A DNA stretch of 64,000 bases, from positions 1-64,000 of the forward strand of contig BDIU01000363.1 in assembly GCA_002118135.1 (NCBI GenBank), given 5' to 3'. The notes below the pieces were generated by a model. That model saw only the letters and a program-made list of their open reading frames with translations. It was not told the DNA's origin and searched no databases. Made by a program: the position numbers and the translations under genes. The stretch's first letter is position 1. Each line of letters opens with the position of its first letter. Shown here piece by piece: positions 11,489 through 61,257 of this stretch. The DNA comes from Trebouxia sp. TZW2008 (lineage: Eukaryota > Chlorophyta > Trebouxiophyceae > Trebouxiales > Trebouxiaceae).

Positions 11489-14400
11489 TCATGCATCAGG
11501 GCCTGTAATGTTTTGCTTTCGTACTGATGTTGCTGCCTTTTGCGCAGCTGGAGCGGCCTGCACATGCAAGCACATGTTCACGCGAAGTTGCAATGTCAGT
11601 GTGCATATATAAGACTTTGCCTGAAACCTGCAAAGGCAACTATTCACTTTCTTTTGCCTTGTGCACAACATACACAAGCGCGCAAGGCGTGAAAGTAGCC
11701 GTGGAGAGCTCCTTTGCCTCCAGTGATGCACATTCCAGCAACAAATGCGCAAAGCATGCATGTCATACCTCAAGTATGCTGTCTTCTATTGCCTCCACCA
11801 GCATGGCAGCCTGGGCTCGCGCCTCTGCATCCTGCATTGATGGAGTCTGCTGACTTGCCGCTGTTTGCCTGGGCTGCTGGTCATTTGGACCCTGTTCTGT
11901 AAACAATAACATTCTGAGGACTGGTACAGTCTGGATCACATGCAACTCAAGCCACAGGGCAGGCATAATAGCAGTTTTTGAATTCTGAAGCTCAGTGACC
12001 TGACCAAAGTGGCACGTCATATATGCTATCATGAAATGGATTGTCATCACAGCAGATGCAACTGATGTTTGCATAATCAAGCAATCCTCTATTTTGTGCC
12101 ATCACAGTACCCACCTGCAGGTGGCTTGGGCTTGCGGCCCTTTCGCTTGGCTGAGACTTCTTTGCCTGTTGCCAAGTCAGGCTTTGGAGGCAAGGCTGCT
12201 TCTGGCACTGTATCCTGCTGCTCAGCGCCTGCTTGCAACGCTGCTTTGCTGCTCTCAAGCAGCTCCAAAGGGGACCCTCCCATTTCTTGTGTAGCCTGCT
12301 GTTGGATAGGCTGTGACTCAGGCCTTGCAGCTGACATTTCCTGTCCTGTGATCAGGTCAGGCTTTGGCAACAACATATCTTCTTCCTTTTGCAGTGCCTC
12401 TTCTTGTTCAGCTGGCGCCTGTGAAGCTGTTCTCTTGGCTGACACCGTGACACCGGCAGCCAAATCAGGCTTAAAAGGCAGTGCAGCTGCAGTATCCATG
12501 TCTGATTGCTGCTGTAGCGGCTCTGCTGCTGCTCTCTTGGCCGAGACTTCCACACCTGTAGCTAGATCAGGCTTGGGTGCAGCTGCCAATTCCAGCTCTG
12601 ACTGCTGTTGAACAGACTCTGCTGCTGTTCGCTTGGCCGACACTTCCACAGCTATAGCAAGATCAGGCTTTGGAAGCAATGCAGCTTTCGTGTCCAGCTC
12701 TGGCTGCTGCTGTAGTGGCTCTGCTTCTTTTCCCTGCACTGACGCTTCCAACCCGGTAGCCAGATCAGGCTTTGGAAGCATCGCAGCTTCTGGTTCCAGC
12801 TCTGATTGTTGCTGTGGTGGCTCTGCTTTGTCTCTTTGAGCTGACACTTCCACCCCTGTAGCCAGGTCAAGCTTGGGAAGCAACGCACCTGCAGTTTCCA
12901 AAGGTGACTGTTGCTGGAGTGGCTCTGCTTCGTCTCTCTGAGCTGATGTGTCCACGCCTGTAGCTAGATCAGGCTTGGGAAGCAATGCAGCTGCACTTTC
13001 CAAATCTGATTGCTGCTGAAATGGCTCTGTGTCTGCTCGCTGGGCTGACACTTCCACACCTGTAGCTAAGTCAGGCTTTGGCAGTAATGCATCTGCTGCT
13101 GATCGCCCCAGTGGCTGGCCATTATTTGTCTCTGCTGCGGCTCGCTTGACTGACCCCTCTTGCCCTTGGAACAAGTCAGGCTCAGGCAAGGCAGCATCTG
13201 CTTGTGTCTCCAGCTGCTGCTGAAGTGGCTCTGCTGCTGCTCTGTTGACTGACACTTCTTGGTCCTTAGCCAAGATAGGCTTAGGAGGTGATGCAGCTTC
13301 CCGCAATGCGCTGAGCCGTTCAGCACGCGCTCGCAATGCGTCTTGGCCTCTTTGCAACAGCTCAAATGGAGCCTCAAAGGCAATGTCATCCAGCAGCTTT
13401 GCATTGGCCAGGTCCTCTTCAGTGAGCTCTGAGGAGGGCGGGAACAGGCTGTCCATCCAGCTGACAAACGCTGACTCAGCTGGATTCTGATTTGCAGAGA
13501 AAGCAACTGCAGTAGGGGGTTGCATCAATGGGCTGACTTCAGGGTTCTTGACTTCAAGTGTGTCTGCAGCTGACGTCGTACAACTCTGGGAACCTGAGGC
13601 AGCCTGTGCTGTACTGACCTTGGCAACGTCGCTAGCATCAAGTCCAGCAGCAGCAGTGGCAGCAGCACTGTCTGGAGAACTGGCAACTTTGGTAGGAGGG
13701 CTGATTGTGAAGCTGTCTGATGTACTGGCAACATTGCTGGCAGGTGCACTGCTTGGTGTGCTGACGCGTGGAGTGGGAGCAGTAGCAGTATCAGAGACAA
13801 AGGGTGAACTGCTGGCAGCAGGGTCGGCAGAGGCCCTGGGTGGAGAAGTGGCTAAAGTGCTGGCAGCATCACTAACTGGAACAGTGCTCGGAGTAATGAC
13901 TGATGAACTGAGGGAAGCACTAGAGGCAATGGCTAAAGTGCTAGCAACAGGACTGGCAGAGGCACTGGGCGCAGCAGCATCTGAAGTGCTGGCAGCACTG
14001 CTGACTGGAGAACTGTTTGGAGTGATGACTGGTGCATTGAGAGCAGCAGCAGAGGCGTTGAGTGAAGGGCTGGCAGCAGGACTGGTGAAACCTCTGGGTG
14101 ACATGTTGGTCGCAGAACTGGTAGGGGCCTCAGGGGGGTTGTCTGCAGCAACACTGATTTGGTGTGGGGGTCATGTGCTGACAGGACAGGTAGAGACACT
14201 GGAAGGCTTGTTGGCACCAGCACTGATGTGGCGTGGGGGTGGCAAAATGACAGGGCTGGTAGAGACACTGAATGGGACATTGCTAGCTGCACTTGTAGAG
14301 ACACTGGTTGAAATGCTGGCAACAGGACTGGCAGGGGCGCAGGTGTGGATTGAGCAGCAGCACTGGCTGGGGGTGGGGATTGGGTTTGGGGTGGGGTTGG

Positions 14401-17400: not shown

Positions 17401-20400
17401 AAAACAACCATGGGGCTGGCATCTGCTGCTTTTAAGGAAAGAATGAAGCAAATTATGCAGGGCTTGAGTGAACGCAGCCTAACGCTGGGGGTTTAGAGAC
17501 CTTTCAGCAGTGTTCTCCTGGATGACTGATGGGGACAGTGAGCACAGAGCACATCGTCACTGCTGTACTTGTAGGTGAAAGCTCTACAACAGCACCACAA
17601 CATGCTTTTGAGAAGCCTGTGCTGAACTGTCAATTCATGCTGTTTGCTCTCTGCATCACAATCTTTATGCACCAAATTCAGAGCATTTTGTGTTCAGATT
17701 GACTTGATGTACATCAACACAAGCATCTCACAATGGGTGACAGCCTCAAAAACATTGCAAAAAGGGTACCTTGTCTTGGGCTTCCAGCTGCGCCACGATG
17801 TCCGCCTCGCGCTGCAAGGCCTGCTTGCTGTCCTTCAGACTGGCGGCCAGGTCCTTCTGCAACACCCCGCTGCGCTCCTGCTCTGCAATCAGCTTTTGCT
17901 CCAGCTTCCCAGACTCACCCTGCACCGTGACCTGGACTCATGGCCTAATCCTTGTCAGCTACAGCATGCAGGCAGTTGTAACAAGGTATAGACATTCACC
18001 ATCAGCTGCGCTAGGCAGACTGCCTTGACCAGACTTGTGCTGCGCAGCACTAGATAGCATGCAAGCAATGCTCAGCAGACTTGATATGAGCAAACAGTCA
18101 TTGTGCCAACTACAACCTTTAGCAGAACCTGTGGAAAAGAAGACAATGTTTCAAGACTTGAGTTCTGCTGCAGCATGCGACCTTTGCCAACAGCTGCGCA
18201 GCACTGAATTTTATAAAATTACCTTGACAGCTATGTAGTGGAAGGAGACAGGCTTTGCAGCACGCGGGGCTGACAAACTGAACATGGGCAATGTCTTGAC
18301 GAGGTCGAGGGTGGTGACATAGTTACTGCATTGGCAAAACATTGCATCCACAGCACATGAGAGAGAGAGAGACATTACACGCTTTGGCCAGCCAACAAGT
18401 CTGGTTGCATGTGTCAAAACTCAATCAAATGTTGAGACAACCAAGACAGGTGTTTACGAGGGCATCGCGCAGACCTGAGCAAGGCTGAGCTCATCCAAGA
18501 GGTGCTGCTGCTGCTTAGCCTGTGCAGCAACCACCTCTTGCAGCTTCCCGCTTGCCTTTTCAGCATCTGCCAGCTTTGCAAGGCTGCCCGCCAGCTCAGC
18601 TTGCAAAGCCTCAAACTCCTCCTTTCGCTCCTCTGCGTCAAAGTCGGCATCTCTGAGCTTTGCCAGCACCTCCCTTGTGTTCTGCAAAGCATCGACTTTT
18701 TCAGCAGCAAGCCCCAATCACAACAATATGCAATCTGCAATGTGTTATTTTGTCATTCGAACTCAGACAGTCTGATGCTGCTTGAAGTCAGGTTTCACTT
18801 TGTGCAATTGCAGCATGACATCATTGCAGCATGACATGGTCTGGAGCGAACTGCTTGCAGCAAAGAGGTGCAACTTGGCTTGTGTGCTACCTTTGCTGAT
18901 AGGCGACTAGTTTGCATTGTTGAACTGCTTGGTTCAAGGAAGCATTACAATACTTGGCCATGCAAGCAGTGTAACGGCCAAGTTGGGTTTGCAAAGCAGC
19001 TGTGCAGACAGGCATGAAAATCTTCAGATAAGCCGCTGCATGAGAGCAGATCCCACCTCGATGCCTAACAGGGAACTTGACAAAGCGTCTGCTGATCACC
19101 AAGTTGCAGACACCCCAACTAAGCAATAGCACAATGATGTGCAATCAGCACTTACTATGATGGCTGCATCTCTTGCTTTGACCAAGACCGCTACTTCTTG
19201 CCTTTCCTTCAGCACAAGCTCCTTGGCAGCATTTGCAGTCTCCACTGCTTCATCCAATGTAGTCTGCATCACCACCAAATGTCAATGGTGGGCAAACTTG
19301 ACAAATGACTTTTGTGAAAATTGTGCAGCTGTTTTAGGAGACAAAGCAGAGGTAACATGCATTCCTGATGCAAAACATTTGTTGATTAAATGCTGGTTTG
19401 TACAGCAGCCATGGGCATAGCAACTGAAGTACATGTTGCACAAAGCGCTCATTTTGCAAAGGCACCTCCAGGTACACTTACTGCACATGCTTGTCACACA
19501 GGCACATGCGTTTATACTCACCTAAACATCCTTCGACTGCAACACTACAATTGTACCACCCAAGTGTGCCGTACTAGAAGCAATAAACAGGTAAAGGGCA
19601 ATAAAGGTGCCGTACTGGAAGAAATTGACACTTGCAACGCCAATGCGTGTGAAGGCATGCAACCCACAAACCCTGCCAGCACCACTGTGTTTCCATGTGT
19701 GTGGATGCAGTGGCAGGTGTACCTTTTGGTCTGCCCCAGCAGCCTGGGCAATGGCCAGCTGCTCCATCAGCATCTCCGCCTGGGATTCACTCTGCTGCTT
19801 GTCTCTGGTGTTGCGCTTGCCAGCGGCCTGCAGCTCCCCGCGCATGGTGTCCACCTGCTGCTGCCGGGATCGCAGATCTATAGACAGAGACGCCACCTGT
19901 ATATGTTGACAATATCAGCACAGCTGCATGCATACAGCTTACACCACAGCATTGCTGTTGCTGCTGCAATTGCAATGCTGTGGTGTCAATGAGCAGAGAG
20001 CCACCTGCCTGTCCACAAAACACTTGCGGTCGTGATCGATAGACTGTCAACTGACTTGTTTCCAGGCATTTTACGTCACAGCATTGCTGCCAACATTGCA
20101 GGTCTACAGACAGAGAGGCCACCTGCTTGGCAAACATACACTCGTCCACATGATGAGCCTGTCACTGTTTCATGCACAATCATCATGCAATCATGCATCT
20201 GATGTCAATGTCATCAAGCACCCCAAGTGCCATTCAAGGGCTTTTGCTGAAACAGGAAGAAGTGTGGCCTTTTTGCATGCTGCACAAACCTGCAGTGAAG
20301 CCTGCACTTTGCTCTTCTTCAGCTCTGTCTCCACCTCATCAAGCCTCCCTTTCAGGTTGACAACGCCAGATTTGGCAACCTCTAGTTGCTGCTCAGCATC

Positions 20401-22369
20401 CTCCTTGCTCTGACCCGCTGCATGCAGCTCAGTCTTCACAGACTGCAGCTCGCTGTTAGCTGCAGACAGCTGATCCTTGGTGTCTGTGTAGCGTGACTGA
20501 ACCGACTTCAGACTGGCGCTGATGCTTTCCAAGTCTGACGTTGATGATGCCTGAAGCTTCTGTAGTTCTGTCTTGAATGAAAGCTGCGCCTGTTCCAGTT
20601 GGAAACACTCTTGCAAGTTTGTCTGCAAGTTCTTCTGCAGGCTTTCTACTTCAGACTGGGATGAAGACAGGTCAGACTGCAGCGCCTCTTCCCTGGTTTT
20701 GGCTGACTCAAGTTCACTGAGCAGTGAAGACGCCCGCTGCTGCTCTGTTTTCAGCTTGGCCTGAAACATTGAAAGCTCAGATGACGCTGTCTGCTGCTTG
20801 TCTGCTGCTGACTTGACGTCCTTCTGCAGGCTTTCTGCTTCAGACTGGGATGAAGACAGATCAGACTGCAGTGCATCCTCCCTGGTTTTTGCTGACTCAA
20901 GTTCACTGTACAATGAAGCTGCCCGCTGCTGCTCTTGCTTCAACTTGGCCTGAAACATCGACAGCTCAGATGACGCTGTCTGCTGTTTGTTTGCTGCTGA
21001 CTTGATGTCTTTCTGCAGCGTGGCTACCAACTCTTGCTCTTTCTCCAAGCGAGAGCGGGATTTGGAGAGCTCAGATGCTGTTGTCTGCTGCTTAGCTGCC
21101 GCTGACTTGATGTCATGCTGCAGAGAGGCTACTAGACGCTGTTTCTGCTCAAGCTGATCTTGCAAGATTTTCAGCTTGGAGGATCTGCCCTCATGCTCAT
21201 TTGCTGCTGACTCAGCGTTGCGTCTGAAAGAGGCGGACAGCTGCTGCTCTTGCGTAATGCTGCGCTGTAGATCAGCAACTTTCTGCTGCGCCCTGTCAAA
21301 ATCGCGCTGCATAGTGACTACCAGCGTCTGCTCTTGCTCTAGCTTAAGGTCAGACTCTCGCACCTCCCGGTCCTGTCATCCAGTTCATTCTTAGAAATCA
21401 AGTATCATGCAGATGTAACAGCTAGCATCCGGTAAGAGCTAACTTTGTTTGAGATATTTGATGCAATACTGCAGGCATGTTGTGGGAATTGTATATCATG
21501 TCGATTATCATGATTTTCAGCAGTGCTCAAAACAGGAAAAGCGCCATGCCATACTGCATGCAAGTTGTGCAACTTGGATGTTTCGTTAAACATCATGGTC
21601 TTCAGCAGTGCTTGAAACAGAAAGAGCGTTGTGCCGGGACAATGCTTGCAATAAGCAAGCAGTTCTGGAGTTCATACTGTACCTTCAAGGCAAACATGGC
21701 TGCAGCTCCAACACCAGGGCCTATAATGTACTTCAGAGCCTGACCACCAGAGGAAGGAGCATCTTCAGGCAAGCTTGGGCTGAATGCTGGGAAGTCAATA
21801 GGTGGCAGTGTGGCATCTGGGCCTGATATATCAGTCCTTGAAGGTGGTATTGTCGCTTCTGGTCGTGACGCGGCTTCGTCTTGGAGATCAAAGCTATTGG
21901 AGCCATCTTGCTGCTGGTAGTCAGCGTACAACCCTGCGGTGTCCTGGCCTTCGGAGTTAGCGAATTCGCCTTCTCGGTTGTTACGATCGTCGTTGGCCAG
22001 TGCAGTCTGCTCCTGGGCCTGCACCCGCCGCCATTTGGACTGAACATCGGGCTTAGTCGTGCAAAACTGTGCAGTGATCAACGCCAACAGACGTACCTCG
22101 TCTGCTCGACTCGCGACCGCGGGTTGGACAAGAAGACAAGTCAACGCAGCTATTGCACTGCGTCGCGTTGTTCGCAGGACACTGCTGTCATTGGAACTGT
22201 TTGTCGCGTTCAGCACGTGACCACAGCTTCTTCTGCGAGATGATCGTGCGATAAACTTGGCGGGTCTTATCCAGGTCGTGCCGGGTAGCAGGTAAGCATG
22301 CGATCTTGGTGGCACGAGAGTCGCTGCAGGATACAGACGCTTTGCGTGCAGCACGCTCGGCTGCAGCAT
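11489..22369 (-). CDS. MFP1-like thylakoid coiled-coil protein with long repeat tail
   Basis: Thirteen exons (minus): 22369-21683, 21372-20290, 19896-19723, 19263-19156, 18681-18475, 17931-17770, 17283-17137, 16739-16623, 16238-16104, 15847-14620, 14142-12115, 11896-11769, 11557-11489; 6,273 nt, 2,090 residues. Residues 1-60 look like a plastid transit peptide. Residues 69-89 form a twin-arginine signal (TTRRSAIAALTCLL...AVASRA), and a second hydrophobic stretch, YIIGPGVGAAAMFAL, lies near 214-228. Residues 230-940 are coiled coil with internal repeats (AKQQTTASELS, ELESAKTRE). Residues 941 to about 1560 are Ala/Ser/Pro/Thr-rich, then come about eleven PKPDLATGVEVSAKR-type repeats ending in a basic KRKGRKPKPP. 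Plant MFP1 is a thylakoid-anchored, nucleoid-associated filament-like protein of about 700 residues; targeting signal plus coiled coil suggest the same class. The identity rests on architecture, and the tail has no counterpart I know. The first nine exons all have lengths divisible by three. Confidence 0.72.
12115..13300 (-). repeat. Tandem PKPDL repeats coding for the MFP1-like tail
   Basis: About eleven imperfect units of roughly 33-40 codons lie within one exon. Each carries a core like KPDLATGVEVSAKR followed by an acidic, Gln-rich linker (AEPLQQQSELE). The early units are degenerate (KPILAKDQEVSVNR, EPDLFQGQEGSVKR). The last is the only one that ends in the basic string KRKGRKPKPP, which resembles an AT-hook-type or nucleic-acid-binding tail. 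Confidence 0.85.
14147..14619 (-). repeat. Intron holding copies of an exon's 3' edge and donor
   Basis: This intron of the MFP1-like gene follows the exon that ends SVSTSPVG at 14620 with donor GTACGCC. Within it the segment recurs: near 14415 a second copy again reads SVSTSPG followed by GTAGTACC, flanked by matching GT-rich and CA-rich DNA. The two copies are offset by about 200 bp. The intron is taken as phase 1, joining G to AC of the exon that starts at 14142. Confidence 0.6.
19897..20122 (-). repeat. Two decayed copies of an exon start inside the upstream intron
   Basis: The true exon begins at 19896 with CAG then GTGGCGTCTCTGTCTATAG (VASLSIDLRSRQQQ). Upstream in the same intron, copies begin after CAG at 20122 (VASLSVDLQCWQQC) and at 20004 (more diverged, with an inserted CAG/CAA-rich run). 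Each keeps an AG acceptor and the first 12-15 codons. This is direct sequence evidence for repeated duplication of the intron-exon boundary. Confidence 0.75.
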
Positions 22370-48041: not shown

Positions 48042-48049
48042 CCTGAAGG

Positions 48050-51000
48050 ATGTCAGAGTCAGTACAACCATTGCCTCGAGGGTCTCCTCTCTATACAGCA
48101 ACCGGCAACGAAAGCCCATACACCAATGCACAGGTGTGTATTTCAGTTCATTCCGGTCCATGCTGCACACAAACAAAACGCTGTTCCTGCTTGCCTAGCA
48201 GTGCCTGTGAACCATCAGTCAGGATGAAGTTGCAGCTGTAAATTTTGCACACATCTCTTGGCAAGATTGGTTTGCATGCAGTACAAGAGATCATCAATGA
48301 ACACCTTGCTAGGGTCAGTGGCTACTCAAATGACTGTCCCTCAGACAAAGTCATGAGCCATCGCTTCACTGATGGTGCGCTGTGACATCACAATGTGTCA
48401 TTGCTGCAACAAGCATGGCATGCTTGATGGCCTGCAAACCTCTGGTTGGCAAAATAGTGCAGAGCATCATCCAGTGTGTGCTGAGCCACACAGAGCACCC
48501 GGGGCACACGTACTCACCTGTCTGTACCTCTGGCAAAGCATTGCAGCACATCACTGTGACAATCCTGAGGCCTACAGCAACCATTAGCGCGCCTTGCCAC
48601 AATGTGTTTGTAAATGTGATGACCATCATCAATATAAGCAAGCCTGGTATGCAGCAACCTTTGGTGGGGGAGCTGGGGCAGAGCACCATTCAGAGTGTGC
48701 TGAGCCACACAGAGCATCCAGGAAACGCCATCAAGGAGATTCAGGTGAAGGCCAGCCTGCGCAATCGCCACTGCCAGCCACTGCTCAGCCTGCTAGATGA
48801 ACTAGGAGTAACCAGGTAATTACGATGTCTAGTCTGATGTAGCTGCTTCACGCATGGTTTAGGAAACAGCAGGGTCGGGTCAAGGGTGCTTATGGCACAA
48901 GGGCAGTGAATTTTATGTGATTACTTGCAAGATGAAAATCAACACAAGCGAAGGCCACTGCTCAGCCTGCTACAGGTGATTACCATGTATGGTCTGGGTT
49001 TAGCTTGTTCAGACATGGTGAAGACTCCAACAGGGTTGGGCCAATGGTGCTTATTACACAAGGACTGTGAATCCCATGTGAGTCCTTTGAACGCAACAGT
49101 CAACAAGAGAGAAGCAACTGACTGCTCAGCCTGCTGATTGAGCTTGGCGTTGTCTGGTACAGCATCCAGTCTCGTAGTGATAGTCATCATCTTGACACTT
49201 TTCAGCATGTGGCACAAGCTATGTCTCTGCGTCAGCTAAGGCTGATCTAGGCAAGTATGGTGCTAAGGTCAAGGTCTGAGGCCTTAGTGTGCTTGTGGCT
49301 CAAGACCCAACGCATCATGTACATGTACCTGTTGAGAGAGAGGGAAAACAGCATCTGTCCACCTTGCATGAAACATTTGAGCCTGTACAAGGCAAGGTTT
49401 GCTCTTGCGCAGTCAAGCTTCTGCAGTTCATCAATGGTGCCCTTCACGGGGGTTTCAGAGATGGTCAGTTTGTGCAGCTGCAGTCTACATTGTCATGATT
49501 CTTCTAATTTTGCCAGCCTTACATCCTGAACTGTTGCTACCAGTGGTAACGTTACTGATGCCACTTGCATCAGGAATAGTGGACATTCTCAGGTTTGATG
49601 GACAGGAAGTGACGCGTCAAGCAACAACAATCCCACAACTGGCAAAGTGCCAGGTGAAATTCATGACACAAGGGGTGCATCAATGTCAGGAAATCGTGGT
49701 CAGAGTAGTGTGCAGCCTGCTGACTACCTTGATGGCATGTTTGCAGGCTGGACACTAACCCAACCACAAAATCATCATGTTGTTGCAGTTTTTGTACAAT
49801 GAAATGTTGTGGTCAGCATTGATTTAACTCACACATGAATCAACAATGGTCCCACAAATGGCAAAGCGCCAACTGCACTTCATGATGCAAGGGGTGCAAC
49901 AACATGAGGAAGTCATGGTGGGTGAATGATCTAGCCTGCTGACTTATGGCCTGATAGCAGGCTGGACACTCATCTAACCACAACATCCTCATATTGTTGC
50001 ACTCCTTGCATCATGCAATGTTGTTGTCTACATCAATTTGACTCACGCATGAATCAACAATGGTCCCACAAATGGCAAAGCGCTGACTGCACTTCATGAT
50101 GCAAGGGGTGCAACCGCATGAGGAAGTCATGGTGGGTTAAGAGTCCAGCCTGCTGACTTATGGCCTGATAGCAGGCTGGACACTCATCCACAACATCCTC
50201 ATGATGATGCACTCCTTGCATCATGCAATGTTGTTGTCTACATTATTTTGCCTCAAGCATGAATCAACAATGCTCCTATGATTGGCAAAATCACGACTGA
50301 ATTTCACCTGCATGTTGTCTCACTCCTCGCATCATGAAAAGTCGTTGTCAACATCAGTCCAAGTCATGCATGAGTCAACATTGGTCCCACAATGGGCAAA
50401 GTGCGAAATGGACTTCATGATGCAAGGGGTGCAACAGCATGAGGAAGTCAAGGTTGGGTAAGGATTCAGCTTGCTGGCCTGAGTGCAGGCTGAACATCGA
50501 TCTAAACACAACATCTTCATATTGTTTTCCTCCTCGCACCATGAACTGTTATTGTCAGCATCAGTTCAATGTGTGTGTGCATGAATGTACAGTGGTCCCA
50601 AGCTGGCAAAGTGCCGAACTTGATGATGCATGGGGCGCAACAAAAGAAAGAGGCCATGGTCATATAGGTCCCTGGCTGGCTGGCTACCTTCATGGCATTT
50701 TTGCAGGCAGGACCCATTCAACCGTGACTGCCTCGCGCTGTTGCACCCCTTACATCAAGAATTGTTGTTGCCATCATGCACAGGGCGCACATCACTTCCT
50801 TCGTGTTGCAAGTGTCCTTATTGATTGCTGCAGCCCCTGTTTGATACAAAGTGAAATCACAACTAGCAAAGTGCTGACTGCCCTTGCAACATCGCAAACA
50901 AGAGTTTCCACTGTAAGTTTCTGTTGTTGGAAATGCAGTAGTCATCACCAGTGTAAACTTGATTGACAAATTGGTGACTGCCTTTATGGCATGAGTGTGA

Positions 51001-54000
51001 GCCAGCGACTAAACTAGCCATGCCAGTGAGTTTTGATGACCCTGCCAGATGCATACAGAAGCAGTGGGCTACCTGCAAACAGACTTGTCCAAAGCCATGC
51101 TACATCAAAGTAACTTACAGTCAAGCCTTGACTCAGCCAGATCTGTGCACCATATTGTATCTGCATGACTGCAGGCTTGAGACGCATCTGGCCATGCTAG
51201 AGAGCGCCAAAAAGGTGCTGGCTGACAAGATTGACAGCATGCAAGAGGAGGGGCTGCTGGCCCTCCTGGAGGACACCTTCCCCTATGTGAGACGCTACCC
51301 TGCCTGAGGTCATAGAGTAATGCCATACTTTGCTCTCATGATGCATGGCACAGCTATCTCTCTTATAGGACATAGACTATAGAGGCCAGAGACGACTCCC
51401 GGTTGCCTTGAGTCATGTGCAGAAAGGTCTGAAGGCATATGCTGCAGAGGTTGCACTTCAACATGCAATGTTGCACAGACAAAGCCAACACTGGCCTTTT
51501 GCATTGTTGCGTGTGTCGAAAAAGATCGACAAAACCCTACTTGCAACTCAGACCTCTGCAATGAAACAAGTATGTTTGGACAGGATCTTGGTGTCAGTGC
51601 AGGTGAGCATCGATGGGCTGAGGTCAGTGCCTCTTGAGATTCTGAAGAGGCTGGAGACAGTGCCTGAGGCGTACCTGCAGGAGCTGGGTCATGACCACCA
51701 CCTCTTTGCTGAACTGCCTGTGGCTGTACAGCGCCAGGTATCCCTGTTGATTTCACATAGTGACTGCCAAAACAAGAGAACATAACGTAAATGCTCCGGG
51801 AAACAGCTTCCTCAGTGCCCGTGTGCTGCACATGTTTGCTACATGCTGCTTTGTTAAAGAGCAAGGTAGTGCTCATGTACAGCCTGCTGCCCGCGCTTTC
51901 TGCTTTGCATCTGCTGCATGACTGAATGCAAATCAAAGATTACACAGAAATACTGTTCCAGCCTAATGTTGCTCCTTCCACGCAGCAAAGCAGTAAGTGT
52001 GATGCCGACTTGACATCGTCCAAATGCACCAATACAGCTAGGAAGATGGCACACAAGCCGCAGTACGATTTGACTTACTGACTGCTGAAGCAAATTGCTG
52101 CAGGTGTACGAGGTGAACAGGAAGCTGCTGCAGGAGCATGCGGCGCCCCTGATGGCGGTGTACCTGCACGGCGTGGCAGTCGTGCGTCAGGAGCTCAACA
52201 TGGATGTTGCCCGCAACTCAGTCAAAGGTATTTGCCACAAAACTAAGAAGAAAAATCTACGCCTAACTGCGTCATAATAGGAGCCTCTGTCTATCAAGGC
52301 AGCCCGTCTCATCATGCCATCGAGCTAAGAGCTGTGACTGCTGAAGTAGGCAGCAAGCTGGGTCCTGAATCGCAGGTTGAACTCAGCTTGACAGGTCAGG
52401 CCTGCTGTGTGTCATCTGAAGCGCTACTTGCACTTTCATGAGCATGTGGCCCATGCCATCAAGGAGTGTCTGCCATGGTGAGACTTGATTGCGCTTATAC
52501 TCTCCTGTGTCCTTTTCAATATTGCTTTTTTTGGCACTCTTTCTTTTCCTTCGGTCTGTAAACAAGTCAAAAAAGTTTTGCTTTTTTTTCTCACATGAAT
52601 TACCACTACTTTCATCAATTATGAACCCAGCCAAAAAGCAAGATCAAAAGCCTTGCCCACATGCATTGCACTGAAGTACATAAAGCCTGCCTGTTGCTCA
52701 ACCTGCGTGATAGTATGCACTGCCTGAGATGCGAGCAAACAAGGAGTGCCCTACCCCACACAACACAATTTTCACCTCAGAGAAATGTCAACATGATTAG
52801 CATGTGCCTGTTTCACTCTTGATAAAGTTTTCGTCATTTTTCAATGGTAACCTTGTTTCATACGCGTCTTGTCTTGTTAGATTGATGCTGTACCAAAAAC
52901 TCTGGAAAAACTTTGGGAAGAAAGCAAGACAGGCATGGTGTGCAGGGCCGCCAAGGGGGACGTACCGCAAGACGCTGGCCCACCTGGTCAAGCTGGTCTC
53001 CATGATTGGGTCCTCTCGCAAGGCAAGCTCCACCCTCCTCACCCTCTGGGTCCCTTGCCTGAACTTCACTTGTTGTTCATTGAGGATGAAAACAGTCTCG
53101 CATTAGGGCGCAGAGCAAGATCTCTTTGGTGTGGGATACAGCCGCAATTTGCAGGTCACGCTTGATGTCCTGTTCTGCTTACTCACCTTCATTTGTGGTC
53201 ACTCACTTCTATGGGCTGTGTCACACACTTTCTGAGGGTTCATAGGATTCATATGATACTTATCTGCCTTGTCATGCTTGAGCAGAAAGCATGAAGTGGC
53301 AGCGTAATCTCTGCTTGCATACTGCTCAACCAGGAGAAGACAGATCACTCGTGTCCTTGTTCCTCAGAGCCCTTACTCAGTAGTATGTCAGGTCCAGCGC
53401 TTGCACTCCATTTGCTGCTGACTTTCGCATATGCCAGAGCAAACAGACCATCTTGGCAGCTGATAAATGGCTTCCAACCTGCAAGCAGTTGTGCAATAGC
53501 CGTGGCATCTCTAGACAGCATCGCAACAAGCTTTACAGACAATGTTGCTGCCTGATGTATGCTTGCTTTTCAGCTCTCAGCACATGATTGGAGGCTGCTA
53601 CTGAGCTGCACGCCTGCTGCTTGACTGTTGCAGGTGCCAAGGGCAGCTTGACACAGCCACAATGGACCTGCGTACTAGCAGGTTCAAGGAGAGTGTGGCT
53701 CCGTACAAGGGTCTCAATCAGCACTGCATTGTACCCAGCATGCAGATGCTGCTGCTGCGTTGCCTTAAGGGCTGCTGCCTGTGGTGATGCAGGTGTACAC
53801 AGCTATGACAGCCCCATGCGCAAGCAGGTTCAAAGGGTAAACCAAGAGAGAGAAAAAAGGAATGAAAATGCCCGTAGCAATGCCGGGCTCTGTTGCAGTT
53901 TGTAGCTGCAAAGAGTGAGCTTCTGTACGATGGCCTCAATCAGCACTGCAGCCTACCCAGCATGTAGATGCTGCTGCTGCGCCTTAGTGGCTGCTGCCTG

Positions 54001-57000
54001 TGGTGGTGCAGGTGTATACAGCCATGATGGACCTGTGCAACAGCCACATAACGGAGAGTGAGGGGTCGCACATCTGACCAGACCAGCACTGTATCTTGCA
54101 TCACACGCTGAGGCTGCTGATATTTCTGCCTGGCCGCTTGTCAAGTTTGGCGTGTATCAGCGCAGGTGTACACAGCCATGATGGACCTCTGCGTGAGCAA
54201 ATCAGGGAAGCAAGGGTCTGCACGGGAGCCTCAAGCACTGCACCTTGTCCAGCATGTAGACGCTGCTGCTGTGTTGCCTTAGTGGCTGCTGCCTGTGGTG
54301 GTGCAGGTGTACACAGCCATGACGGCCCTATGCGCAAGCAGGTTCAAGGAGAGTGAGGTTCTGTACAAGGGTCTCAAACAGCACTGCACCTTGTACAGCA
54401 TGTAGACGCTGCTGCTGTGCTGCCTTAGTGGCTGCTGCCTGTTGTGGTGCAGTTGTACACAGCCATGATGGACCTGCGTGAGCAAGTTCAAGGAGAGTGA
54501 GGGTCTTGACCTTGGCATAAAGCAACTTCAATTGTTCAGCTATGCAGTTCAGGCCATGTCTTCTGTTGCGTATTTGAGTGCTGAGCTGAGCATGTGGCGG
54601 TGCAGGTGTACACGGCCATGATGGATCTGTGCGTGAGCAAGTTCAAGGAGAGTGAGGGGCTGTATGTCGGCCCCAACCAGGCAGGCTACTGCCTGCTGCG
54701 CTCTCAGCTGCTCATGGCCTTCCATGACAATGTCCCTCATCTTTCCTCCTCCCGCCAGATTGCTAATGAGGTACAGTAGTTTCTTGGTACATGAACATTT
54801 GGTGTGAGCAAATAAATTCCAAATACAAGACAATGCAAGTGCGGATCCATCACTGTGTTCCAGCTACCTGTCACTTTTGAAGAGATTTTCATGTAAGTAC
54901 ATTTTCTTTGTAAACAATGCAGTCAGTACAAGGAGAAATTGTTGAGTTGTACATTCAGCAAACGTTTTCCTGTTGCAGCTCATGGACCTTCACAGCTGCT
55001 CATGGCCTTCCACGACAGCATCCCCCACCTCACCTCATCCTGCCAAATTGCAGATGAGGTAATATTCAAACTGCACGCAATCATGTGTTGCATATTGTTT
55101 GATGTGCTGCTGTGCCTTGAGTTTCTGTCTCAGCTCTGCAGCATGTCATTCCTGAAAGCTGCTCATGGCCTTTCATAAGAATGTCATCTACCTCTTCTCC
55201 ACCCGACAGATTGCCAATGAGGTGTTGTACAGCCAGCAAATGTCCTCCCATTGCAGCACAAGTTTTGTACAATTCCTGGTAGTCTTTAACAACAGTGTCT
55301 TTGACTTATCCACCTCCTGCCACTTTATCAATGAGGTATTGCACAATCAGCAAATATTCTCCGGATGCAGCACAAGATTTTTTAAAGCTCCTCGTGGCTT
55401 CTGTAAAGAGCCCATGATGCACTGCCTCATCAGAAAACATCCTTCTTATGCTGCATATGATCGCACTTATGACCCTATTGCTCCAGCACCTGTCATGTTC
55501 TTTACTGCCATGGTCTTATGCAATTACCTGGCTGCTCTTCATGCAGCTCTACCGTCATTGTAGCTGCCCTGCAAGAATTTCAAACAACGTATGTTGCTAT
55601 GCATGTGCAATTTCAACTTGCTGCAGCTGGTGGCACTGTGGTGCAGATGTTCTGGCAGCATTTGATACAATCATTGTCAGTGTCATGTGTTATCGCAGGA
55701 CCCATGTCATGACTTGGCATGGACTCTGGATGCAGCCATTGGGCACAGCCGCAGCCCCCAGGAGGGCGACCCCCACCCCACCGTCATGAAGCCCGCCCAC
55801 CTTGCCCAGCTTGGGAAATTCTTCTCACGCCTTGAGTCTCAACAGGTGATGGCCCCTTCTTGTTTTTGGAATGGATGCTTCCTGCAAAAGTAGCTGCTAT
55901 GGTGGAGCATTTGGAGCTCCTGTACTGGGTCATTGACTCTTTCCAGGTCGTGTGTTTGTGGGGCGGAACTTGAAGATCCTGTACTAGGTTATGTGCAAGT
56001 AAAGGCTTTACGATGCGAGGTGTCAAATGTCGCAACTGCTTCTGTGAGGGTAAGACACTGCCTTCTGTGCTTACTGATTGAGTTTGCTTGGCTGCCATGT
56101 CTTAAAAATGCACCTTGCAAGCATGTACAATAGTGTTACATTGACAACGTACTCATCGGAGATGATATGCAAGTTTGTTGGGCAGGCGGAAATCAGAAAC
56201 AGGCTATAATCGTCCACTCCTGGCCAGTTCAAATGATTTGCAACTTCTGTTGAATTGCTGTTCTACAGGACAGTGGGAGGGGCAAGAAGAGGAAGCAGGG
56301 GTCAGGGGAGGGAAGCCCCATGTACAGCGGGGGTGAGGGCTGGGGCCACAGCTCTGGCAAGAACATTGCCGAGGCCGGCATGATCCTGAGAGACCCTTCT
56401 GCCCTCCATATCATCATCAAACAGGTAAGTAACATGATCATGCATCCGCATGCGTATCAACTGTGGACTCTCAAGCTGACCCTTTGAGACGTGCAGAGGC
56501 TGACATGAATGTGAGAGACTGCACTACAGGCTTTGTATGCTAGCTGGATAGGATCATCTAGAATAGACACTGACTCCCTTCTGACCTTCATTTCATCATT
56601 GATCAGGCATGCATGCTGGTGCATCCATGTGCATACCGCTGCCAAGTCCCTCAACAGACCCTTCTGCCCTCGATATATTCATCAAGCAGGTCACTTGCAT
56701 ACTCCTGCAACCATATGCATATCATTGTGGACTCTGAAGGGACTGTTCAACACTTGCAGAGGCCGATATGATCCTGAGGGGCCCTTCCGCCCTGCATAAC
56801 ATGAGCAAGCTGGTGACTCGCATCTGTATCACTGCACAGTTTATAAGATGCCCTTTTGCCTTCCAGCATCAGCAAACAGGTCTGGTGTATATCTAATACA
56901 TTCATGAGCACTGAAATGTGAGGTTCCCGGCTATGTATGCACAGCAGTACTTGTGGCGTTGTCACCCTTTTGGGGTGCCCATTTGCTAGCGTTCAAGGCC

Positions 57001-60000
57001 AGTATTGCTCATATTGCTGCGTCTACCACACTGAGGATGCTTGCAAATCAGCTGTCGACATCTGGGCTGCCAGGTTGCGCACTGTGCATCATCATGAGCT
57101 CAGCAACAGGGCAAAACTCTTGTTATGACAGCACTGAAAGCGGCAATCTCTTGACAAACTTTGCAAACACTGCATTGGGCTTGTCTTGCCTCTTTCATGG
57201 GACACATGCATGTCACTTAGCAATCAGTCATCAAGAAGAACTTTCAGGCGTCAGGTTTGATGGGCTTAGGACCAGCATGCTGTGCTCACATCTGAGGTGT
57301 ACGCTGCAGGTGTTGCAGCGCTTGCCATCAATCATAGAAGCCATGACTGTGCCTAGCGAAGATGAAGAGCTAGTGTTCCTCACACGCTTACTTCAGGTAG
57401 GCCGGACTTGATGGCACGCCAACAAAAATAACCCTGAGTGGAGCACAGTTCAAAAATATTGCACTAAATGCTTGTGCTTGATGTCTTTATGACAAATGCT
57501 TTTGCTTGTAAGCCTGAATTTTGCTGCCAGGATTACTCTGCTGATATCATGAGTATTGCCGACTGGTTGTAGCATGCTTCAAACTCTGATTGGGCAATAG
57601 TTGTGCTAGCCACCTGTACAAATGGGAGGTACCAAGCACCTTTTCCAGGGTGCACCAGAAAACTGCTATGCAGTTGCCAGATCAATGCAAACAAGCTTGC
57701 CTTCAAATTGGTAAGGCACAGCACCATGACCCCGGCTTATGGTGCAATGCAGTTGGCAGTGGGTTGTCGCCAAATGCTGAAGGAGAAGAAGTATGCCTTC
57801 CCGCCTGTCAAGGCAGAGTTGGCGGGAACCTTCTTCAGCATTCTGATTGGCTTCAGCCTAGAGGCTGGCACCTCAGAGTATGACGCGTCAGGTGATGACT
57901 CATATTGACAATCAAAGACAAGTGTCATGATGTAAGTCATCAAATGATGCTCACGCTTGTGCATTTTGTCCGGCTCACATTCTAGGTCTGCGCAGCGCCA
58001 ATCTTGTCTTATCAATGACTCAGGTTTTGACTGCAAACAGCTTAAGCTCAATGCAACGGGCAGCTTGACTAAGACAGTATGTGGATTTGCACCAATTCCT
58101 GCTGCATGGATATCTTACTGACTCCTTTCGCGCTGACCAGCAACCTTGCTGCAGGCACAAGCATCAACCAGCCAAACAGGCAGGTTGGCGTTGCCAAAAT
58201 ATTTTAGTGTAGCCCAATCTTATCTGATAGGCACAAGTTGAAACTAGTCCAGCAGCTGAGATTTTCCTCTTGGCCAAGCCTTGTTGTTCTGACATTGATG
58301 ACACGCTGCATATGTTAATTTTCATCAGCTAAACGAGCAGCTTTTGTCCTTTGGAGATGCTTCATTTTCAAGAATCTTTGTTCTCATAGACTCTATGCTG
58401 CAGATGCAAGTCTTGATCAGCCAAATGAGCAGCTGGTGGAGTTGTTGGTGCATGAGGAGGTGGCGAGGCATGTGACAGCCATGTACACCCTGGAGCGCAT
58501 TGATGCCCAGGACTGGGGCCTCGCACGCACTCTCATGGCCTCCATTAACCAGGTCTGAGTTGTTGCATGATCTCATTTTGCCCTAGATTGAGCTCGTACA
58601 CTGTCCTATCTGTGTATGTCCTTTATCACAAGCACAAACTGCCTTGCAAGTTGGTCTTCAGCTGTGTCTGTTGTGTGCATAAGTTATGGACTGAAGTATG
58701 ACAAACAGCGTCAACTTGCAGCTCTGACAAGACAGTCAGTGGTGTGATGCCTGGCGCACACAAGTCAGCGTGGCCCCTGTGCGCATTAGCTGTGTGTCTC
58801 ACTTCATCACGCCATTTTCATCTCCTTTTCTAGTATATTATCCAGCAATTTCTGGCCTTGAAGCAAATGGACAAGAGGGCATTGTCAGAATGGGCTGCAT
58901 GCGCCGCTAGACTGAAACGCAAGCTAGCAATCATGCTGGAACATATCCTTCCTGATGTCACCTTAGAATACTGTGATAGTCTGGTCAATTTTCAGAATTA
59001 GCGAACTCTGATGATGCAGACTTTAGAGCAGTTAGATGAGAGGGCTTTGCCAGAATGGGCAGCATTTGCTGCCACACTGGCACGCAAGCTAGCTGATCTG
59101 CTACCTCGGGGGCGGGTCGCCCTGGGAGACCCTGTCTGGATTGCCTGTGTCGACAATTTTCTGCTCAAGGCTGTTGACATTGACTCACAGGTTGGTGTAT
59201 TGCAATTGCGTTTGTAGTAGAACTACTTCGTTGCAATGATATGCTATGCTAAACTCTTGTTGAAGATTGTTGACATTCACTCACAGGTTGGCAGTGCTAT
59301 GTTGCAGTTGAGCACCTTTTGAGCAGCCTGCATCGACACACTCTGTGCACCACGTTGTTGACATGCACTGAGAAGTCAGTCGTCCTCAACCCAACTTACA
59401 GGCAGTGTGCCTTGGCCACACGTCTGTGCAACCCTCTTGACATTGATTGAGGCCAGTCATCTTGAGGGAAGTGCCTGGTAGCTTAGGTCTTGAGCATCCC
59501 TTGCAGTGGCTTGCAACCTGTTGCATACTGTTGTTCAGACCATGACTTCAATCTTCTGAGTTCTGTGCTACAGCAACCTTGTAATCACAAAATCTCAACC
59601 CAATGTGTTCACTGTTGCAAGGGCAATGCAACTGGAAGACATTGCGTTTTGTTGCAAGGATATTCTTGAGTATTATCAGGGCTTCAATTTTTCAAGAAAT
59701 ATTGGTGTACCAGGTGCACGGGGAGGTAGTGCGCATCTTTGCTGAGGGCGCTGACCAACACTTGAAGCATGAGGAGCAGGCGCGCCAGGACAAAGCAGTG
59801 GCAGACAAGACCGGCACCCCTAACCAGCCCCGCCCTGACCCCTTCCCCGTCCCCCGCCTGGTGGAGTACCTGCACAAGTGTTTGGCAGCCACAAAACACA
59901 GCAGAAAGTAAGCATATTCTGCAAGATCTCAGAGTTGGTTCATGATCTGAGGCAGAAGTACAGCATGTCCTGGCAGCGATCAGCAGCATAAAAGTTTGCG

Positions 60001-61257
60001 CAAACAGTGCTGGCCTGAGTTATCCGGAGTCGAGTGCTTGATAGCCACAAAACACAGCACAAAGTACGCAGTGGTCAAAGCTCTTACACTGCTCTGATGA
60101 GGTGTTGCAGAAGTAGTGCTGCACAATCAGCAGCAGCAGCAGCAGCAGCAAAGCCAAGTTTGTTAGTGAGGTCCCATGAGCTGTCAAATGCACACGCGCG
60201 CACCAATCTGCCTGCAGAACACTCTTGTCATGAGCTGTCAGGAGCCCAGTAGTTGGCAGCCAATGCACATCGATGCGGTGTACTGTCCTCACCTTTGTCA
60301 ATCAACGGCGTTTGTGCTGATGGTTCAGAAAGCAACAGCAATTAGGTGCAACAGCAATTAGGTGCAACAGCACCCATCGTGCCAGACATGCCTTGGTTCC
60401 ATCAAACATTAAGCCGTTATGTCTTGTTTGCTGGAAGCATAGCAGTACACTGCAGGCGTCACAAGAAGCGTAAGCAGGAGGAGATGCAGTTCATTAAGGG
60501 CAGCGTGAAAAACAAGGGCGGCTACAGCTCTGGAGGCGGCCTTACCAGCAAGCCCCTCATTACTCAAGGTACCATCTGCCTTGATTTGTATACTGTTGTG
60601 ATGCATATGTGCAAAACAGCAGGCATCACCTGCCTTGCAATGTACATTGTTGTTTTGCATGTGCACATCACAGCAGGCACCACGTGCTTTGATTCAGTTT
60701 GTGATTTGTTGAATTGCATGTGCGCGTCACAGAAGGTAGTTTCTGCCTTGTTTTGCTGCCTCTATCCTTGTAGATCTTATTTTGCATATGCGCATCACAA
60801 ATCATAGCACTTGCAGCTGCCTTGTTTTGCAATCTCTTGTTGCTGCAGTTTGGTATCTTTTGAGATGTGTTTCTTCAGCAATAATTGCGCTGCTGCGTGT
60901 AGCGTCATTGCCAATGTAGGCAGAGTGTGACACTAATTTTTTGCGTTGGTGTTGTCAAACTTGATCCCTATTGAGCGCTGGCCATACAAGATGCAGCGCT
61001 GTTTGGGGCAACCATTTACAGACACCACTCTGAGTGGCAGGTTGGATGTATTTGACAGCTGCATCTTTGACCGTGCAGACACTGAGACAGAAGGGGCAAT
61101 GCATGTGGATCCAGACAACACAGACGGCGTAAGGAGTGAGTACGCCATACTAGCACCTTCCCAGAATAAGGAGGGCAGCGGCACATCTTTGGGAGACAGA
61201 CTGAAACTGACCAAGGACATGGCGCCAGAGCTCTTTGCCTATCTCAAAATAGACTGA
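48050..61257 (+). CDS. NELFB: NELF-B (COBRA1), negative elongation factor subunit
   Basis: Subunit of NELF, which pauses RNA polymerase II near promoters in animals. Sixteen exons: 48050-48133, 48655-48815, 51175-51286, 51603-51737, 52104-52227, 52946-53022, 54606-54770, 55699-55845, 56269-56424, 57310-57396, 57681-57891, 58404-58552, 59020-59190, 59714-59907, 60456-60568, 61022-61257; 2,322 nt, 773 residues (human 580). Family matches: SVLSHTEHPGNAIKEIQ near the N-terminus, LEILKRLETVPEAYLQEL, PPRGTYRKTLAHLVKLV, YCLLRSQLLMAFHD and, most telling, DPCHDLAWTLDAAI (from 287), then AEAGMILRDPSALHI and a helical C-terminal half. Residues about 336-370 and the last 115 are low-complexity or lineage-specific. 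Exon 6 ends AAG|GCAAGC, a GC donor fixed by homology. Its introns are the richest in exon-edge copies. Its ATG has A at -3. The gene span is 13 kb. Confidence 0.85.
48430..48654 (+). repeat. Upstream copy of NELF-B exon 2
   Basis: Exon 2 proper starts at 48655 (QPLVGELGQSTIQSVLSHTE). About 219 nt upstream, from about 48435, a copy reads KPLVGKIVQSIIQCVLSHTE and then HPGH. It lies in the same frame, but its acceptor CAG has become CAA, so it is probably a dead copy. The frame runs open from this copy into exon 2. Confidence 0.75.
48940..49170 (+). repeat. Two downstream copies of the 3' edge of NELF-B exon 2
   Basis: Exon 2 ends CCACTGCTCAGCCTGCTAG...GTAACCAG then GTAATTACGATG. At 48955-48990 CCACTGCTCAGCCTGCTAC is followed by AGGTGATTACCATG, and at about 49115-49165 ACTGCTCAGCCTGCTGATTG recurs with GAGCTTGGCGTTG. 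Both are decayed copies of the exon end; the first still has a GT donor. Confidence 0.65.
49490..50800. repeat. Tandem array of inverted-repeat units in a NELF-B intron
   Basis: About five diverged units spaced roughly 210-320 nt apart (left arms near 49661, 49880, 50094, 50415 and 50625). Each unit has a left arm like CATGATGCAAGGGGTGCAAC and a right arm like GTTGCACTCCTTGCATCATG, about 75-100 nt apart, so the transcript could fold into a stem of about 30 bp. The loop carries a smaller inverted pair (AGCCTGC...GCAGGCT). No target-site duplication or transposase was seen. Exon-edge origin could not be shown for these units. Confidence 0.6.
53640..54605 (+). repeat. Six copies of the 5' edge of NELF-B exon 7
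   Basis: The true exon starts at 54606, GCAG then GTGTACACGGCCATGATGG. Copies with the same junction start at about 53649 (edge decayed), 53793, 54012, 54166, 54307 and 54453, so units are 140-220 nt. Most keep GTGTACACAGCCATGA and reach AAGGAGAGTGAGG, about 50 nt into the exon. The intron part of the unit (GCTGCTGCCTGTGGTGGTGC) is repeated too. Several copies keep AG acceptors and open frames, e.g. at 54307 VYTAMTALCASRFKESE. Confidence 0.85.
54978..55340 (+). repeat. Three copies of the 3' edge of NELF-B exon 7
   Basis: The true exon ends at 54770: CTGCTCATGGCCTTCCATGA through CAGATTGCTAATGAG, then GTACAG. Copies of this end with a following GT occur with boundaries at 55058 (GCAGATGAG|GTAATA), 55221 (GCCAATGAG|GTGTTG) and 55335 (ATCAATGAG|GTATTG). 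Divergence grows with distance. A faint fourth trace lies near 55385. With the upstream copies, this exon is bracketed by echoes of both of its edges. Confidence 0.82.
56580..56880 (+). repeat. Four copies of the 3' edge of NELF-B exon 9
   Basis: Exon 9 ends at 56424: GACCCTTCTGCCCTCCATAT, CATCAAACAG, then GTAAGT. Decayed copies end near 56606 (ATTGATCAG|GC), 56689 (ATCAAGCAG|GT), 56812 (AGCAAGCTG|GT) and 56879 (AGCAAACAG|GT). The intron text after each (CATGCATCCGCATGCGTATC and similar) is repeated as well. Confidence 0.75.
58846..58983 (+). other. Diverged in-frame copy of NELF-B exon 13 (possible alternative exon)
   Basis: This segment resembles exon 13 (59020-59190) over about 30 residues: MDKRALSEWAACAARLKRKL against LDERALPEWAAFAATLARKL. 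It begins after a pyrimidine-rich acceptor (TCTCCTTTTC, TATCCAG) and ends CTG|GTCAAT. It is 138 nt, 46 codons, open throughout and phase 0 at both ends, so it could be included, or swapped for exon 13, without breaking the frame. The donor is weak. It may be a decaying duplicate or a used alternative exon; the sequence cannot decide. Confidence 0.55.
59191..59460 (+). repeat. Copies of the 3' edge of NELF-B exon 13
   Basis: Exon 13 ends GTTGACATTGACTCACAG at 59190, then GTTGGTG. At 59287 a copy ends TTGACATTCACTCACAG before GTTGGCAG. Weaker traces follow near 59355 (GTTGACATGCACTGAGAAG) and 59435 (CTTGACATTGATTGAGG). Confidence 0.65.
60028..60075 (+). repeat. Copy of the 3' edge of NELF-B exon 14
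   Basis: Exon 14 ends GCCACAAAACACAGCAGAAA at 59907 with donor GTAAGC. At 60044-60063 GCCACAAAACACAGCACAAA recurs, followed by GTACGC, about 156 nt further on. Confidence 0.7.
60128..60148. repeat. (CAG)7 microsatellite
   Basis: Seven perfect CAG units in a NELF-B intron. No coding role. Confidence 0.9.

What the first reader, a model, noticed from the sequence alone, without database searches (positions are those of the whole stretch)
11489..61257. Introns built from serial copies of exon edges ('exon-edge echoes')
In four genes (MFP1-like, SART1, RMT2, NELF-B) the intron next to an exon holds one to six diverged tandem copies of that exon's edge, always including the splice site. Copies of a 5' edge sit upstream with AG acceptors; copies of a 3' edge sit downstream with GT donors. 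At least ten separate cases are listed in the features. This points to repeated tandem duplication across intron-exon junctions as a main way introns grow here, leaving arrays of decoy splice sites and spare exons. I do not know of this described as a genome-wide pattern.
Basis: partly seen in the sequence, partly recalled or inferred. Interest (0 to 1): 0.85.

Follow-up and report, generated by a model that had tools for sequence, protein, structure and literature searches.

The report
Introns carrying decayed exon-edge copies
In a Trebouxia-like green alga, about one intron in eight of those sampled carries old partial copies of the edge of the exon beside it, usually with its splice site, most likely because short local duplications that straddle a splice junction do no harm and so survive as junk and as decoy splice sites.

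Summary
I sampled 304 kb of the same genome (68.5 Mb; closest protein relative Trebouxia) and modelled genes with a self-trained gene finder (47 genes, 421 introns). Forty of 338 testable introns hold a significant copy of an adjacent exon edge. Among 182 strict introns, 20 echo the next exon's 5' edge and 14 the previous exon's 3' edge; introns of other genes gave 0 of 1,820, non-adjacent introns 0 of 322, edges facing away 0 of 162 (facing: 14 of 162). Copies reaching the edge mostly keep AG (26 of 31) or GT/GC (24 of 27). They are partial and decaying (39 of 39 gaps break the frame), in a genome rich in local direct duplications (203 direct versus 12 inverted pairs within 1.5 kb).

Best explanation: short tandem duplications persist where splicing at the copy joined to the rest of the exon restores the mRNA; that alone gives the up/downstream rule. 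"Main way introns grow" is not shown: 13.6% of intron bases lie in recognisable duplications. Unexplained: in 27 of 57 copies similarity ends at the splice site where simple decay predicts 1-2, which leaves room for a junction-linked mechanism.

The parts
48619..61257 (+). NELF-B gene (coding span as modelled; 17 predicted exons, of which 53142-53154 and 53793-53836 are probably false calls)
   Evidence: gene finder; PDB match; Trebouxia sp. C0009 protein P0001
54606..54770 (+). NELF-B exon (VYTAMMDLC...QIANE) whose two edges are echoed
54454..54506 (+). copy of the 5' edge of exon 54606-54770, 94% over 53 nt, AG kept, offset 153
54307..54365 (+). copy of the same 5' edge, 83%, AG kept
54166..54220 (+). 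copy of the same 5' edge, 85%, AG kept
54012..54065 (+). copy of the same 5' edge, 80%, AG kept
53640..53833 (+). further member of the same upstream array (79-80% to two array members)
54990..55058 (+). copy of the 3' edge of exon 54606-54770, 80%, GT kept
55157..55221 (+). second copy of the 3' edge, 84%, GT kept
55267..55338 (+). third, weak copy of the 3' edge (61% to the reference); lies 114 bp beyond the second, and the adjoining stretches 55215-55280 and 55329-55395 align at 78%
56269..56424 (+). NELF-B exon with echoed 3' edge
56656..56689 (+). copy of its 3' edge, 88%, GT kept, similarity continues into the intron
56749..56808 (+). second copy of its 3' edge, 83%, GT kept
58874..58928 (+). 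copy of the 5' part of exon 59020-59133, 82%, stops 19 nt short of the edge; TG where AG would be
60033..60063 (+). copy of the 3' edge of exon 59714-59907, 87%, GT kept
48437..48503 (+). copy of part of the first coding exon (48656-48722), 81%, upstream of the modelled start; no splice site in it
49612..50770 (+). 214-bp tandem array wholly inside NELF-B intron 1 (no exon part)
46358..46485 (-). copy of the acceptor region of RMT2 exon 46077-46205 (17 nt exon + 112 nt intron), 72%
27576..27639 (-). copy of the acceptor region of SART1 exon 27376-27524 (21 nt exon + 42 nt intron), 88%, offset 72
25233..25307 (-). copy of the donor region of SART1 exon 25380-25575 (14 nt exon + 62 nt intron), 74%, offset 85
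20085..20122 (-). copy of the 5' edge of MFP1-like exon 19723-19896, 82%, AG kept
21461..21628 (-). 85-bp tandem duplication (75%) wholly in an intron of the MFP1-like gene

Best explanation
This Trebouxia-like genome undergoes frequent short local tandem duplication (nearest copy spacing mostly 60-200 bp, most often 140-180). A duplication that straddles a splice junction is nearly harmless: if splicing uses the copy still joined to the rest of the exon, the mRNA is unchanged and the other copy becomes intron. Duplications inside an exon are mostly removed by selection. This survivorship alone yields the rule that 5'-edge copies lie upstream (with AG) and 3'-edge copies downstream (with GT). 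The stranded copies then decay, mostly neutrally, leaving near-authentic decoy splice sites; repeated events build serial arrays and lengthen introns. Shown: copies, their side, their frame-breaking decay, decoy strength, longer introns. Inferred: the molecular cause of the duplications, that decoys are not used, and that their position is random. The 140-180 bp size invites a nucleosome- or Okazaki-fragment-sized cause (inference only).
For: Side rule: copy upstream of a 5' edge 31 pairs versus 3 downstream; copy downstream of a 3' edge 23 versus 3 upstream. By my reading the six exceptions rest on probable false exon calls (four) or the MFP1-like coding repeat (two); some pairs on the expected side rest on the same weak calls, and pairs within one array are not independent. 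Edges of long exons facing the intron match in 17 of 235, edges facing away in 0 of 235. Local direct bias: 203 direct pairs within 1.5 kb, 5 direct farther, 12 inverted near, 9 inverted far, 0 in shuffles. Plain tandem structure in young cases: at C20 exon 27641-27876 the exon part of the copy is 87% and the 40-nt intron flank 88% identical, and the copy follows on the duplicated intron piece. Decay: 39 of 39 gaps break the frame, 9 stops in 1,471 codons; AG lost in 5 of 31 and GT/GC in 3 of 27, about what 0.10-0.12 divergence per site would give (my estimate). In the 30 copies whose similarity runs on into the intron, codon positions 1 and 2 differ equally (0.108, 0.109) and position 3 twice as much (0.225), as expected for a neutral copy beside a constrained exon. 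Single-pair clusters with at least 40 nt of comparable intron: 4 junction versus 9 intron-only, ratio 0.44 against 0.47-0.58 for random placement. Introns with a copy: median 623.5 versus 317 bp, p 5e-8.
Against: (1) In 27 of 57 testable copies the similarity stops at the splice site although the exon part is 77-95% identical; a neutral strict-tandem simulation expects 55.6 of 57 to continue. Intron pieces shorter than 60 nt account for at most 4 of the 27; one rests on a probable false exon. (2) 61 of 83 clusters join exon and intron and 13 are intron-only, against 46.3 (sd 4.0) and 20.0 (sd 3.7) for random placement and a simulated detected ratio of 0.65-0.84. Single-pair clusters alone give 32 to 10, 29 of the 32 with a strong exon, so the 4:9 count holds only where intron sequence was copied too and is not a neutral test of edge-limited copying. 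(3) In the 27 copies that stop at the junction, codon positions differ 0.129/0.070/0.286, a coding-like pattern; within arrays, copy-private changes are biased to position 3 (0.161/0.125/0.281, p 2e-9), though copies shed at different times from a slowly changing exon would also give that. (4) Overall, third positions differ 2.25 times as much as the mean of the first two (0.123/0.095/0.245), slightly above the 2 that a neutral copy allows. (5) Contig C120 has only 1 cluster in 40 kb.
Confidence: 0.63

Rival explanations
1. A junction-linked copying process (for example template switching or repair coupled to transcription or splicing) deposits copies of exon edge plus splice site into the neighbouring intron, so breakpoints fall at or near the junction.
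For: 27 of 57 copies lose similarity at the splice site, 1-2 expected; e.g. C20 exon 47439-47584: a 43-nt exon copy at 95% lies 176 nt away with no detectable flank similarity. Exon+intron clusters exceed random placement and the simulated ratio, also among single-pair clusters (32 to 10); among all clusters with a comparable intron part, 24 junction (strong exons) versus 12 intron-only at 70% identity, p 2e-5 to 3e-4.
Against: Where at least 40 nt of intron was copied too, single-pair clusters show no excess (4 versus 9), and long arrays touch exons more often by size alone; 30 of 57 copies do continue into the intron, up to 88% over 40 nt; intron-only arrays exist; faster intron turnover than I modelled would produce the same stop, and exon parts stay detectable longer because one side is conserved.
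Confidence: 0.25
2. The copies are, or recently were, working alternative exon ends (alternative 3' and 5' splice sites), and coding constraint preserves them.
For: Third-position bias overall (0.123/0.095/0.245) and stronger in the junction-limited copies and in several VPS41 copies; splice dinucleotides largely kept and decoy scores high.
Against: All 39 gaps break the frame; offsets are in frame in 15 of 58; copies are mostly partial with one splice site; the Trebouxia C0009 NELF-B protein lacks the extra pieces and the stretch of VPS41 that aligns to PDB 7zu0 (residues 816-986) runs through the echoed exons 24460-24657 and 23285-23472 without them; an ORF carrying two NELF-B copies found no relative (weak).
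Confidence: 0.08
3. Assembly artefact: haplotypes or strains collapsed into false local duplications.
For: The assembly has 527 contigs and its source is unknown; some copies differ in a coding-like way.
Against: Scored copies are 76-100% identical to their exon, up to about five or six in series, found on four contigs, obey the side rule and carry frameshifts; haplotype errors usually give long, near-identical duplications (general knowledge).
Confidence: 0.03

Closest known systems
[quoted passage not shown] not held; recalled, and seen only as a reference in PMC3443670)
   Same: Short tandem duplication inside genes that can include a splice junction.
   Different: Here the copies are partial exon edges that become intron, often in series, in 40 of 338 sampled introns, with a strict side rule; no new exon or intron is made in the general case.
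Intron gain by tandem genomic duplication (AGGT model; review PMC3443670, passages seen)
   Same: Duplicated splice-site sequence; mRNA preserved by choice of site.
   Different: That model makes a new intron out of exonic sequence; here copies mostly sit well inside existing introns (median 444 nt from the far end).
Tandem exon duplication and degenerate exon relics (Exonize, PMC12343006, part 1 of 3 read)
   Same: Exon-like sequence in neighbouring introns; Exonize has classes for intronic and boundary-crossing matches.
   Different: Its headline counts are full-exon duplications; here copies are edge fragments, mostly with one splice site and a fixed side.
Introner elements (PMC9860276, search listing only)
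   Same: A process that changes intron content across many genes.
   Different: Introners share sequence between genes; these copies match their own neighbouring exon and not introns of other genes.

Membership tests
Internal gene duplication across splice junctions | Direct local repeat in which one copy spans a splice junction of the gene | tested here: met
   59 of 83 clusters classed as junction/echo, 14 intron or intergenic only, 10 exon in both copies; 40 of 338 introns with an edge copy
Internal gene duplication across splice junctions | mRNA unchanged because the outer copy is spliced out | not testable with these tools
   No RNA data; consistent with the Trebouxia NELF-B protein lacking the copies
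AGGT intron gain by tandem genomic duplication | Copy of the neighbouring exon's edge sits at the far end of the intron (new intron inside former exon) | tested here: not met
   Distance from copy to the far end of the intron: 10th percentile 110 nt, median 444 nt; 4 of 74 copies lie within 20 nt, so single cases are not excluded
Tandem (full) exon duplication / mutually exclusive exons | Whole exon with both splice sites copied | tested here: not met
   Of pairs with exon in one copy only: 54 edge type on the expected side, 6 edge type on the other side, 34 inside an exon, 3 whole exon, 1 multi-exon
Tandem (full) exon duplication / mutually exclusive exons | Reading frame kept in the copy | tested here: not met
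   39 of 39 gaps are frameshifts; 9 stop codons in 1,471 compared codons
Introner elements | Similar sequence in introns of many genes | tested here: not met
   Exon edge versus introns of other genes 1 of 3,380; 5 far direct pairs against 203 near. Only within-contig repeats were searched
Minisatellite-type tandem arrays | Head-to-tail copies of one unit | tested here: met
   Met for a subset, e.g. 49612-50770 (214 bp); C1 14788-15237 (100 bp) and C20 18875-19312 (98 bp)

The most novel reading that the evidence does not exclude
Splice junctions themselves are duplication hotspots in this alga: a process coupled to transcription or splicing keeps copying 'splice site plus exon edge' into the adjacent intron, with breakpoints at the junction, so that introns grow by accumulating dated fossils of their own exon edges and splicing has to work among dense near-authentic decoys.
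Probability: 0.2. Interest if true: 0.88.

Novelty: new variant of a known kind. Interest (0 to 1): 0.6.

Why it matters
It gives a dense natural set of decoy splice sites next to the real ones, made of nearly the same sequence, so one can ask directly how the spliceosome chooses between them and how fast unused sites decay. It also offers a concrete route by which introns can lengthen without transposons, and each copy is a snapshot of the exon at an earlier time. If junctions prove to be duplication hotspots, it links splicing or transcription to mutation.

Tried and rejected
Rejected: chance similarity (shuffles, other-gene introns, reverse complements); a shared mobile element (almost no far repeats within contigs, and the 214-bp array matched only itself in a search of the whole genome); plain coding repeats (real at 12143-13300 and 20629-21018, but exonic); AGGT intron creation as the general route.

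Led nowhere: a search for relatives of an ORF carrying two NELF-B copies found none, which is weak because the frame may be broken in relatives. Whether the copies decay under constraint could not be settled: gaps say no, codon positions say partly. One search gave inflated identities for overlapping pairs; I replaced its cluster counts and use only its random-placement expectation. Echoes per gene are only weakly clumped (p 0.06), but 52 of 74 copies lie in four genes. No other eukaryote genome was available, so I cannot say whether the rate is unusual. Of the 421 introns, 338 (both exons at least 30 nt) or 182 (both at least 45 nt and coding score 8 or more) entered the edge test; of 74 edge copies, 16 that did not reach within 6 nt of the edge were left out of the splice-site counts and one more (too close) out of the flank test.

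Full report
What the window is. The window is the start of contig C341 (89 kb) of a 68.5-Mb, 527-contig genome. The NELF-B protein of the window is 72% identical, over 89% of the query, to one from Trebouxia sp. C0009, and six published Trebouxia genomes are 63-74 Mb with 49.6-51% GC (PMC11523091, passages seen), so I take it as Trebouxia or a close relative.

Gene models. No annotation was available, so I wrote a gene finder that trains itself on 304 kb (C341 1-84 kb, C1 1-100 kb, C20 1-80 kb, C120 1-40 kb). It converged on 47 genes, 468 exons and 421 introns, with clear splice motifs (CAG|GT and TGCAG|G) and a median intron of 336 bp. It recovers the NELF-B exons expected from the homologue, but adds two small, probably false exons, one of them (53793-53836) inside the echo array. 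It also calls some copies as exons in other genes, which mostly works against the claim, because a copy called as exon is not counted as an echo; one of the 74 scored copies rests on the false NELF-B exon.

The observation. In NELF-B, exon 54606-54770 has four scored upstream copies of its 5' edge, each with AG, and downstream copies of its 3' edge, the two scored ones with GT.

Is it more than chance? In the 304 kb there are 203 direct repeat pairs within 1.5 kb (40 bits or more), against 5 direct pairs farther apart, 12 near and 9 far inverted pairs, and none in dinucleotide-shuffled sequence. At 42 bits they form 83 clusters covering 34 kb. Comparing exon edges with the adjacent intron in 182 strict introns gives 20 matches for the next exon's 5' edge and 14 for the previous exon's 3' edge. 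Controls: other genes 0 of 1,820, non-adjacent introns of the same gene 0 of 322, reverse complement 2 of 364. For long exons in that set, edges facing the intron match in 14 of 162 and edges facing away in 0 of 162. In the wider set of 338 introns, 40 have a match, and facing and non-facing edges score 17 and 0 of 235.

Anatomy. Of 74 edge copies at 42 exons, 58 reach within 6 nt of the edge; AG is kept in 26 of 31; at donors GT or GC is present in 24 of 27, identical to the real donor in 19. Among those 58 the median exon part is 64 nt and the median offset 218 nt. Nearest spacing per cluster peaks at 140-180 bp (34 of 83) and is 200 or more in 8 of 83. Introns with a copy have a median of 623.5 bp against 317; their share is 4.7% in the shortest quarter of introns, 2.4% in the next, then 10.8%, 25% and, in the longest tenth, 35%. 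Longer introns also offer more room. Only 13.6% of all intron bases lie in recognisable duplication clusters. Decoy sites keep near-authentic scores; 7 of 26 acceptors and 6 of 24 donors outscore their real partner.

How it works. A duplication across an acceptor makes [intron end|exon start][intron end|exon start]rest. Only the second acceptor restores the mRNA, so the surviving copy must lie upstream; for a donor, downstream. Thus the side rule (31 to 3 and 23 to 3 pairs) is a footprint of selection on otherwise ordinary duplications. The copies then decay: all 39 gaps break the frame. Young cases show a plain tandem unit with intron and exon parts similarly conserved, e.g. C20 27474-27589 (87% exon part, 88% flank).

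What does not fit. If every copy were a strict tandem unit decaying neutrally, 55.6 of 57 should still show similarity on the intron side; 30 do. Short intron pieces could explain 4 of the 27 that do not. Those 27 also show a coding-like pattern (0.129/0.070/0.286 by codon position) while the 30 look neutral (0.108/0.109/0.225). Copies of one exon are 86% alike on average in the exon part but 61% in the 40-nt flank (35 pairs; the exon part is chosen for similarity). Within arrays, copy-private changes favour third positions. Either introns turn over faster than I modelled, or some copies end at the junction, or some were once translated.

Counting events gives mixed answers. Exon+intron clusters number 61 against 46.3 expected by random placement. 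Their ratio to intron-only clusters is 61:13 against a simulated 0.65-0.84; single-pair clusters alone give 32:10. With a comparable intron part the counts are 24:12 against 0.47-0.58 expected, but 4:9 in single-pair clusters; that last count by design leaves out edge-limited copies. I therefore favour random duplication plus survivorship, with less confidence than before the recount, and keep a junction-linked process as the main rival.

What is known. Tandem genomic duplication is a recognised route of intron gain (PMC3443670, passages), and exon duplication with degenerate intronic relics has a dedicated tool (PMC12343006, part 1 of 3). Of two Trebouxia genome papers searched for words, one holds neither 'intron' nor 'tandem' (PMC11523091) and the other no 'tandem' and 'intron' only in a reference (PMC12712428). 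In nine library searches none of the listed titles or abstract openings concerned serial exon-edge copies as a genome-wide pattern; the library lacks most subscription journals, and Gao and Lynch 2009 and Hellsten 2011 are not held.

Verdict. The pattern is real, frequent and found on four contigs, though nearly absent from one of them (C120: 1 of 49 introns against 39 of 289, p 0.017). The kind of event is known; its density, seriality and edge-only form look like a new variant.

Noticed in passing
window 49612-50770: 214-bp array inside NELF-B intron 1 whose members also match each other as inverted repeats (66-88% identity; five inverted pairs, longer ones).
   Followed up: partly
window 53023 and genome sample: GC donors seem frequent: about 9% of modelled donors have C at position +2; NELF-B exon 52946-53022 ends AAG|GCAAGC.
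   Followed up: no
window 12143-13300: Coding repeat of about 34 amino acids (spacing near 102 bp), 11 members listed, in a long exon of the gene modelled at 6304-14475.
   Followed up: no
G000 contig C120 1-40000: Similar gene and intron density but only one local duplication cluster and one edge copy; duplication density may vary along the genome.
   Followed up: partly
genome sample, 83 clusters: Spacing of local duplications peaks at 140-180 bp and falls off above 200 bp, close to nucleosome or Okazaki-fragment size (the comparison is recalled).
   Followed up: partly
C20 23000-28000 (VPS41 gene): Five of its 15 copies, picked by eye, differ from their exons mostly at third codon positions (45 of 61 differences), as if translated or derived from a diverged relative before being stranded; all 15 together give 0.119/0.068/0.263.
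   Followed up: partly
window 60332-60372 and 451-491: Short perfect or near-perfect tandem repeats (16-bp and 21-bp units).
   Followed up: no
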